Positions 27,970 to 32,292 of a stretch of 64,000 bases of DNA are shown here, piece after piece. The position numbers were made by a program, and so were the translations under genes. Under the pieces are notes generated by a model. The model saw only the letters and a program-made list of their open reading frames with translations, searched no databases and was not told where the DNA came from. Positions within the stretch are counted from its first letter, which is position 1, and each line of letters starts with the position of its first letter. The stretch comes from Nocardia arizonensis (GTDB lineage: Bacteria > Actinomycetota > Actinomycetes > Mycobacteriales > Mycobacteriaceae): assembly GCF_001310275.1 (NCBI RefSeq), contig NZ_LGYZ01000048.1:62001-126000 (forward strand), in the 5' to 3' direction.

Positions 27970-30464
27970 ATCCCGTACCGCGCAGCGACTCCCGACCGGC
28001 GTCGGACGAACCCGCGGCGCGCACGGCCGTCCCGTCCGACATGGTGACGCTCACCATCGACGGCGCCGAGGTGAGCGTGCCCCCGGGCACCCTCGTCATC
28101 CGCGCCGCCGAACTCGTCGGTATCCAGATCCCGCGCTTCTGCGACCATCCACTGCTCGATCCGGTCGGCGCCTGCCGCCAGTGTCTGGTCGATATCGAGG
28201 GTCAGCGCAAACCGGTCGCCTCCTGCACCCAGACCGTCGCCGAGGGCATGGTGGTGCGGACCCAGCTGACCTCCGCGGTCGCCGAACGCGCACAGGAGGG
28301 GGTGATGGAGTTGCTACTCATCAACCACCCACTGGACTGCCCGGTCTGCGACAAGGGCGGCGAATGTCCGCTCCAGAACCAGGCCATGTCCTCCGGCCGC
28401 CCGGAGACCCGCTTCGAGGGCGTGAAACGCACTTATCCGAAACCGATTCCGCTGTCAACGGCCGTGCTGCTGGACCGGGAACGGTGTGTGCTGTGCGCGC
28501 GGTGCACCCGGTTCTCCCAGCAGGTCGCCGGTGACCCGTTCATCGAATTGATGGACCGCGGCGCCCTGGAACAGGTCGGCACCGCACAGGCCGAACCCTT
28601 CGACTCCTACTTCTCCGGCAATGCCGTGCAGATCTGCCCGGTGGGCGCGCTCACCAGCACCAGCTACCGGTTCCGCGCCCGCCCGTTCGACCTGGTCTCG
28701 AGTCCCGGCGTCTGCGAGCACTGCGCATCGGGCTGCGCCCAGCGCACCGACCACCGCCGCGGAAAGGTGTTGCGGCGCTTGGCAGGCGACGATCCGCAGG
28801 TCAACGAGGAATGGAACTGTGACAAGGGGCGCTTGGCCTTCGCCTACGCCACCGAACCCGACCGCATCACCACCCCGCTGGTGCGCGGCTGGGACGGCAC
28901 ACTGCATCCGGCCTCGTGGTCGGAGGCGCTGGCCGCCGCCGCCGAGGGACTGGCCGCGGCCTTCGGTAACGCGGGCGTACTGGTCGGCGGACGGGTCACC
29001 GAGGAGGACGCCTACGCCTACGCCAAGTTCGCGCGAGTCGCGCTCGGCACCAACGACGTCGACTTCCGCGCCCGTATCCACTCCGCCGAGGAGGCCGAAT
29101 TCCTGGCCGCGCGGGTGGCGGGCCGCGGCGTCACCGTCGACTACGACGCGCTCGACCACTCCCCGATCGTGCTGCTCGCCGGATTCGAACCGGAGGAGGA
29201 GTCGCCGATCGTCTACCTGCGGTTGCGCAAGGCCGCCCGCAAACACCGTGTGCCGGTCTACTCCATCGCGCCCTTCGCCACCCGCGGCCTGGAACGAATG
29301 TCGGGTCACCTGCTGACCGCGGTGCCGGGCGCCGAACCCTATGTCCTCGAGGCGCTCAACACCGACGTGCCGCCGGACACCGGCGGCGCCGCCACCGCCG
29401 CCCGGCTGCTGCGGCGGCCGGGCGCGGTGATCATGGTCGGCGAACGACTCGCGGGCATCCCGGGCGCACTGGCCGCGGCCGCCCGGCTGGCCGACGCCAC
29501 CGGCGCGGAACTGGTGTGGGTGCCGCGCCGGGCCGGTGAGCGCGGGGCGATCGAGGCGGGCGCGCTGCCCGGACTGTTGCCGGGCGGACGTCCCATCGAT
29601 GACGCCTCGGCCCGCCATGAGGTCCGCACCCTGTGGAACGTGCCCGAACTGCCCGGCACGGCGGGCCGCGACACCGGTGCCATCCTCGACGCCGCACCCG
29701 GGCTCGGGGCCCTGGTCATCGGCGGCGTCGACCTCGCCGACCTGCCCGACCCCGGCGCCGCGCTGTCGGCCATCGACGCCGCCCGCTTCGTCGTCGGACT
29801 CGAACTGCGCCGCAGTCCGGTCACCGAACGCGCCGATGTCGTGTTTCCGGTCGCCTCGGCCATGGAGAAGGAAGGCACCTTCCGCACCTGGGAGGGCAGA
29901 CCGCGACGCTTCGCCGCCGCACTCGGTGCGTCCACGGTTCGCCGCGAAGCCGCCAAACTCTCCGATCACCGTGTCCTGCACGCCATCTCGGAGGAGATGG
30001 ACATCCGTCTCGGCCTGCCCGACGCCGCCGCCGCGCGCGCGGAACTCGCCGAACTCGGCATCTGGAAGGGACGACGCGCCGAAACCCCCGACCACCGCGC
30101 CCATCCCGTGCCCCGACCCGAACAGGGCACCGCGCTGCTGGCATCGTGGCGGATGCTGCTCGACCGCGGGCGCATGCAGGACGGGGAACCCAACCTCGCG
30201 GGAGTGGCGCGCCCGCCGGTGGTGCGCCTTTCGGTGCACACCGCCGCCGAGATCGGGGCCGACGACAACGACGCCATCACCGTCGCCACCCGGCGCGGTT
30301 CGATCACATTGCCGCTCATGATCACCGATATGCCCGATCGGGTCGTGTGGCTGCCGCTGAACTCCCCCGACTGCGCCGTCCTCGAACAACTCGCCGTCCA
30401 GCCCGGCGGCGTCGTCCGTATCCGGCGCGCCGACGAGAGGATGAAGGAGCATCGCCATGAATGA
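27966..30464 (+). CDS. nuoG: NADH-quinone oxidoreductase subunit G
   Basis: ATG 27966 gives 832 residues. The N-terminal ferredoxin-like domain has PRFCDHPLLDPVGACRQC, CTQTVAEGM for [2Fe-2S] N1b, then NHPLDCPVCDKGGECPLQNQ, RCVLCARCTRFSQ and QICPVGALTS for the [4Fe-4S] chain. The molybdopterin-like domain begins GVCEHCASGCAQRTDHRR, which retains the CxxCxxxC that binds cluster N7 in some bacteria. The rest is catalytically empty molybdopterin-oxidoreductase fold. It forms the bulk of the peripheral arm and overlaps nuoH by 8 bases. Confidence 0.96.
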   Translation: MNPVPRSDSRPASDEPAARTAVPSDMVTLTIDGAEVSVPPGTLVIRAAELVGIQIPRFCDHPLLDPVGACRQCLVDIEGQRKPVASCTQTVAEGMVVRTQLTSAVAERAQEGVMELLLINHPLDCPVCDKGGECPLQNQAMSSGRPETRFEGVKRTYPKPIPLSTAVLLDRERCVLCARCTRFSQQVAGDPFIELMDRGALEQVGTAQAEPFDSYFSGNAVQICPVGALTSTSYRFRARPFDLVSSPGVCEHCASGCAQRTDHRRGKVLRRLAGDDPQVNEEWNCDKGRLAFAYATEPDRITTPLVRGWDGTLHPASWSEALAAAAEGLAAAFGNAGVLVGGRVTEEDAYAYAKFARVALGTNDVDFRARIHSAEEAEFLAARVAGRGVTVDYDALDHSPIVLLAGFEPEEESPIVYLRLRKAARKHRVPVYSIAPFATRGLERMSGHLLTAVPGAEPYVLEALNTDVPPDTGGAATAARLLRRPGAVIMVGERLAGIPGALAAAARLADATGAELVWVPRRAGERGAIEAGALPGLLPGGRPIDDASARHEVRTLWNVPELPGTAGRDTGAILDAAPGLGALVIGGVDLADLPDPGAALSAIDAARFVVGLELRRSPVTERADVVFPVASAMEKEGTFRTWEGRPRRFAAALGASTVRREAAKLSDHRVLHAISEEMDIRLGLPDAAAARAELAELGIWKGRRAETPDHRAHPVPRPEQGTALLASWRMLLDRGRMQDGEPNLAGVARPPVVRLSVHTAAEIGADDNDAITVATRRGSITLPLMITDMPDRVVWLPLNSPDCAVLEQLAVQPGGVVRIRRADERMKEHRHE

Positions 30465-32292: not shown

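What the first reader, a model, noticed from the sequence alone, without database searches (positions are those of the whole stretch)
30457..32292. NuoH and NuoI fused in a single 611-residue polypeptide
No stop separates a full membrane subunit NuoH from the full ferredoxin-like subunit NuoI. A ninth hydrophobic segment in NuoH would place its C-terminus in the cytoplasm, where NuoI sits, so the fusion is topologically possible. It would tether the Fe-S clusters N6a/N6b to the quinone-channel subunit.
Basis: seen in the sequence. Interest (0 to 1): 0.8.

Follow-up and report, generated by a model that had tools for sequence, protein, structure and literature searches.

The report
Nocardia-wide NuoH–NuoI complex I fusion
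In Nocardia bacteria two neighbouring parts of respiratory complex I, the membrane protein NuoH and the iron-sulphur protein NuoI, are encoded by one uninterrupted gene, which would make a single protein that likely ties the enzyme's two arms together.

Summary
Window 30457-32292 (+) is one open frame of 611 codons: NuoH, a linker, then NuoI. It is not a sequencing slip. In the window's genus (Nocardia, by the named records), 145 of 150 genomes gave a match, and all 145 have both halves in one frame: 76 read base by base, 69 from the match table. All 80 named Nocardia records read are fused. Outside the genus no fused gene appeared among the listed rows of the family, order and phylum samples; the spanning rows that looked like one were read, and each has a stop between the halves. 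In 17 of 18 loci of the same family nuoH and nuoI lie in different frames, so fusion needed an indel. NuoI's start codon and ribosome site are largely gone. A tree supports one origin. A ninth helix would put NuoH's end in the cytoplasm, where NuoI sits. One uncut polypeptide is inferred, not shown. Some database names already say fusion; seven paper searches brought no description. A new variant of a known kind.

The parts
30457..32292 (+). nuoHI fused gene, 611 codons plus stop
   Evidence: open frame, NuoH and NuoI models
30444..30449 (+). likely ribosome site (AAGGAG) of nuoHI
   Evidence: score 6 at the ATG 30457
30457..31623 (+). NuoH portion, residues 1-389, predicted nine transmembrane helices
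31549..31623 (+). predicted ninth transmembrane helix, residues 365-389
   Evidence: model helix, block pLDDT 83-95; hydropathy
31624..31746 (+). linker, residues 390-430, Pro/Ala-rich; length varies between species, always in frame
   Evidence: 55-71 codons between about the end of TM9 (residue 386) and MFKK (447) over 72 genomes
31690..31713 (+). NuoH tail motif GFPTPPLP, residues 412-419
   Evidence: FPxPPxP-type motif in 72 of 72 fused genes and in 14 of 19 separate NuoH tails printed
31747..32289 (+). NuoI portion, residues 431-611, without a start codon of its own
   Evidence: NF004537; no in-frame ATG/GTG/TTG between 31561 and 31788
31753..31791 (+). predicted first helix of NuoI, residues 433-445
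   Evidence: model helix, block pLDDT 56-69; pooled dN/dS 0.19 for 431-447
31897..31932 (+). first 4Fe-4S motif CIGCELCAWACP, residues 481-492
   Evidence: sequence
32032..32067 (+). second 4Fe-4S motif CIGCGLCIEACP, residues 526-537
   Evidence: sequence
22842..30461 (+). nuoA, B, C, D, E, F, G upstream on the same strand
   Evidence: each above its NCBIfam cut-off; some starts approximate
32289..38607 (+). nuoJ, K, L, M, N downstream; nuoJ GTG overlaps the nuoHI stop (GTGA)
   Evidence: each above its NCBIfam cut-off; nuoJ ribosome-site score 9

Best explanation
[quoted passage not shown] Shown: the open frame, its conservation in the genus, the loss of a conserved start codon and ribosome site for NuoI, one clade of fused genes, a predicted ninth helix that matches two solved NuoH structures, and no second nuoI match in the window's genome. 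Inferred: the protein is made and stays uncut; NuoH is inserted first, its C-terminus comes out in the cytoplasm, and NuoI folds and takes up its two 4Fe-4S clusters where they are needed, beside the quinone channel. The likely benefit is fixed 1:1 supply and one docking step fewer. Electron transfer itself would be as in ordinary complex I.
For: Both halves above family cut-offs, both 4Fe-4S motifs intact. 145 of 145 matching genomes of the genus fused; 80 of 80 named Nocardia records. Linker length takes 14 values over 72 genomes, all in frame. In 18 loci of the same family where both genes were placed, 17 have them in different frames, by the printed distances mostly overlapping by 8 bases; the 18th is the unclear G270. 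Ribosome-site score of 5 or more: 16 of 17 separate nuoI starts outside the genus, but 7 of 68 at the shared internal ATG (MFKK) of fused genes and at no other start codon of the last 45 codons (4 of 72 loci dropped because the motif pattern missed them); window background 8.2%. A Met in the old start stretch in 1 of 68. Pooled dN/dS: NuoH core 0.17, NuoI core 0.11, NuoI first helix 0.19, linker 0.58. 72 fused against 15 separate pairs: one change on the tree, support 95/94, in 96% of 200 bootstrap trees. One match only in the own genome at E up to 0.001. Ninth helix. The 12 other Nuo subunits lie alongside.
Against: No protein evidence: cutting in the linker, or initiation inside, is not excluded. 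15 of 68 fused genes have a GTG or TTG in the old start stretch besides the one with ATG, none with a ribosome-site score of 5 or more, and the MFKK ATG is kept. The linker evolves fast, so it carries little constraint. The NuoI half of the model is poor (blocks mostly pLDDT 34-60), so its placing on NuoH was not tested. 69 of 145 genomes rest on the match table. Four of 150 genomes of the genus lack NuoH/I and close NuoF and NuoL relatives, so complex I seems dispensable in some. Two matches in a genome do not prove separate genes: the fused G515 also gives two.
Confidence: 0.88

Rival explanations
1. Sequencing or assembly error: a missed stop or a false indel joins two separate genes.
For: Such artefacts exist: the fusion P0105 labelled Rhodococcus hoagii reads NuoH's tail out of frame and keeps NuoI's start Met, and by eye 29 of the 32 NuoH-NuoI proteins inspected are garbled or cut around the junction.
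Against: 145 of 145 matching genomes, from single-contig to draft assemblies, share the in-frame join; 80 of 80 named records do. The NuoH tail motif is in frame in 72 of 72.
Confidence: 0.01
2. One frame, two proteins: NuoI is also or only made by initiation inside the frame.
For: The ATG of MFKK is kept, and 16 of 68 fused genes have an ATG, GTG or TTG near the old start.
Against: The MFK Met is also present in the separate NuoI printed, and starting there would remove the conserved first helix. Ribosome-site scores of 5 or more there are at background level (7 of 68 against 8.2%). The window gene has no other in-frame ATG, GTG or TTG from 31561 to 31788.
Confidence: 0.05
3. The fused chain is made but cut in the linker, so mature complex I has separate NuoH and NuoI.
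For: The linker is Pro/Ala-rich, variable in length and loosely constrained.
Against: No shared cleavage-like motif was noticed on reading the linkers by eye; no positive evidence for cutting was found, but no test for it was run.
Confidence: 0.07

Closest known systems
NuoCD and NuoBCD fusions of complex I
   Same: Neighbouring core subunits joined in one chain; in 1,374 species D is fused with C or with B and C (PMC12361115, passages); NCBIfam has models for both.
   Different: Those join subunits of the peripheral arm; here a membrane-arm subunit is joined to a peripheral-arm subunit.
Separate NuoH and NuoI of mycobacterial complex I (PDB 8e9g chains H and I)
   Different: Two chains there.
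Thermus thermophilus Nqo8 and Nqo9 (PDB 4hea, 2fug)
   Different: Separate chains.

Membership tests
NuoH (NF004743, PF00146) | score above curated cut-off over the model | tested here: met
   725.8 bits against 494, model 5-413 of 433; PF00146 405.3 bits against 27
NuoI (NF004537, TIGR01971) | score above curated cut-off | tested here: met
   298.4 against 163 and 133.5 against 113.05
NuoI | two 4Fe-4S cysteine motifs | tested here: met
   CIGCELCAWACP 481-492, CIGCGLCIEACP 526-537
Bacterial complex I (NDH-1) | the other 12 subunits encoded alongside | tested here: met
   nuoA-G and nuoJ-N each above cut-off
Fused Nuo subunits (the kind of NuoCD, NuoBCD) | one frame through both subunits, conserved in relatives | tested here: met
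   145 of 145 matching genomes of the genus
Fused Nuo subunits | one polypeptide in the cell | not testable with these tools
   no proteomic data here
Working complex I | NADH:quinone activity and proton pumping | not testable with these tools
   needs experiment

The most novel reading that the evidence does not exclude
A natural complex I whose two arms are held together by a covalent bond: the fusion arose once in the Nocardia ancestor by an indel in the nuoH/nuoI overlap and was never undone, so that NuoI's iron-sulphur clusters are delivered on the membrane subunit that holds the quinone channel, and the arms cannot fully part.
Probability: 0.65. Interest if true: 0.7.

Novelty: new variant of a known kind. 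Interest (0 to 1): 0.55.

Why it matters
The fusions of complex I subunits met in the papers read here lie within the peripheral arm. This one would tie the peripheral arm to the membrane arm at the quinone channel. It offers a natural test of whether parting or free movement of the arms matters, and of whether assembly order shapes gene fusion: in human complex I the Q module, which holds the NuoI homologue NDUFS8, docks on the ND1 (NuoH) module (PMC7645371, passages), and fusions in general tend to keep assembly order and join near termini (PMC4009401, passages). It could also make nuoI look absent in Nocardia annotation, since the NCBI names listed for the fused protein say NuoH or subunit H, with one exception; annotation tables themselves were not checked.

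Tried and rejected
Missed stop or frameshift: rejected by genus-wide comparison. Re-split members: ten full-length rows with a stop inside looked split, but all are open through the junction. Possible fusions in other actinobacteria: 14 loci where one match spans both genes with stops reported inside were fetched and read together with G044 and G039; each of the 16 has exactly one stop between the halves in the same frame, so none is fused. G270 (83% complete genome) shows a stop and out-of-frame stretches and stays unclear. Fusions elsewhere in the protein database: one search listed 120 of 399 hits; I inspected the 32 whose listed domains include the NuoH one; by eye 29 are garbled or cut around the junction, 3 (P0160, P0163, P0236) read cleanly but stand for one or two sequences each and keep a Met at NuoI; not followed further, so rare true fusions elsewhere are possible. 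324 of 444 hits and 279 of 399 were not listed and not seen; the match lists were cut. Structure: the NuoI half of the model is poor, so docking on NuoH was not judged; the second structure job was not used. Literature: searches asked for the fusion, 17, 41 and 60 for structure and assembly; none listed a paper on a NuoH-NuoI fusion. Six papers hold the string nuoHI; seen as a listing only, not opened. Passages of PMC12361115 and PMC13399641 do not mention it. Papers outside the open library, such as the one behind 8e9g, were not available.

Full report
What is there. The frame 30457-32292 on the + strand runs from an ATG with a good ribosome site (AAGGAG) to TGA, 611 codons, with no stop. The NuoH model covers residues 18-429 and the NuoI model 425-598, both above their cut-offs; Pfam agrees. 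Both 4Fe-4S motifs are intact. The gene sits among a full set of complex I genes: nuoA-G before it and nuoJ-N after it are each above their cut-offs. At E up to 0.001 the window's own genome has only this one match, so no second nuoI was found.

Is it an artefact? No. In the window's genus 150 genomes were searched and 145 gave a match. I read 72 in full and 72 are one frame. Four odd rows were fetched and read, three cut at or near a contig end and one with an insertion in NuoI; they too are joined in frame. For the other 69 the evidence is the match table: one match across both halves without a stop. Ten full-length rows of that table list one stop; these ten are among the 72 and are open through the junction.

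Where it is not. In the family sample of 401 genomes 321 have a match: 51 in the genus with one match each and 270 outside it, of which 269 have two or more matches, as separate genes give, and one, G270, is unclear. A fused gene can also give two matches, as G515 shows, and the match list was cut, so this is a sample result. In the order sample (298 genomes, list cut) and the phylum sample (396 genomes, threshold 1e-100) no unbroken fusion was listed outside the genus. Rows where one match spans both genes with a stop inside could have hidden fusions, as the Nocardia rows did, so I fetched 14 of these loci and read them with G044 and G039: each of the 16 has exactly one stop between the halves.

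How it arose. One search looked at 20 loci outside the genus. Of the 18 from the same family, 17 have nuoH and nuoI in different frames, by the printed distances mostly overlapping by 8 bases; the other is G270. The two from outside the family, and the 14, have both genes in one frame with a single stop. So next to Nocardia the genes overlap out of frame, and the fused state needed a frame-changing indel as well as loss of NuoI's start. In a tree of 72 fused and 15 separate pairs the fused ones are one group, support 95/94, in 96% of 200 bootstrap trees: one origin, with no reversal seen.

Is it read as one protein? From about the end of the ninth helix to MFKK there are 55 to 71 codons in 72 genomes, 14 different lengths, always in frame. 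Of 17 separate nuoI starts outside the genus 16 have a ribosome-site score of 5 or more; at the shared in-frame ATG inside fused genes 7 of 68 do, and no other start codon of the last 45 codons does (four loci left out because the motif pattern missed them). The window background is 8.2%. In the old start stretch 1 of 68 has a Met, and 15 more have a GTG or TTG. The window gene has no in-frame ATG, GTG or TTG between 31561 and 31788. Pooled dN/dS is 0.17 for NuoH, 0.11 for NuoI, 0.19 for NuoI's first helix and 0.58 for the linker; the 2,447 pairs are related, so these are rough. Together this argues for one polypeptide, but no protein data were available.

Mechanism. Most likely NuoH is inserted into the membrane and NuoI follows on a short leash, folding and taking its clusters N6a and N6b next to the quinone channel. 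This would fix 1:1 supply and remove one docking step. It fits the finding that gene fusions tend to keep assembly order and join near termini (PMC4009401, passages) and the human assembly order, where the Q module with NDUFS8 docks on the ND1 module (PMC7645371, passages). In E. coli complex I the arms are mobile against each other and NuoD is set apart from NuoH (PMC8357420, passages); a tether would limit parting but, being about 40 loose residues, not small movements. These steps are inferred.

Known or new. Fused complex I subunits are known; those met in the papers read here are D with C or with B and C (PMC12361115, passages). Databases hold the Nocardia protein: the NCBI names listed say NuoH or subunit H, with one exception, and some UniRef names begin 'Multifunctional fusion protein'. 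Seven paper searches (four of them aimed at the fusion) listed no description of it; papers outside the open library are not covered. Of 32 NuoH-NuoI proteins inspected from the list, 29 are garbled or cut around the junction by eye and three read cleanly but are near-singletons. P0105, labelled Rhodococcus hoagii, is a frameshift artefact. They show what an artefact looks like, and the Nocardia gene does not look like one.

Noticed in passing
genomes G025, G035, G455, G469 (same genus): Four of 150 genomes of the genus, 99-100% complete, have no NuoH/NuoI match, no close NuoF (none, or 29-36% identity) and only 34-36% NuoL-like proteins, so complex I seems lost; G457 also lacks NuoH/I but has an 85% NuoL piece (residues 257-628), so an assembly gap is likely there.
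   Followed up: partly
   Followed up: partly
P0105 (labelled Rhodococcus hoagii): Database NuoH-NuoI fusion that looks like a frameshift artefact: NuoH tail read out of frame, NuoI start Met kept.
   Followed up: yes
rows with PF00499, and P0119: Twelve of the 120 proteins listed, and P0119, join NuoI with NuoJ; not checked whether real.
   Followed up: no
L092, L093, L177-L190 (actinobacteria outside the family): In these 16 loci nuoH and nuoI lie in one frame with exactly one stop between the halves, unlike the family neighbours of Nocardia, where frames differ.
   Followed up: yes
P0160, P0163, P0236: Three database proteins outside Nocardia read cleanly from NuoH into NuoI and keep a Met at the NuoI start; could be true rare fusions or a lost stop.
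   Followed up: no
window 32276-32292: nuoJ starts with GTG overlapping the nuoHI stop (GTGA), with a strong ribosome site AAGGAGG just before it.
   Followed up: no
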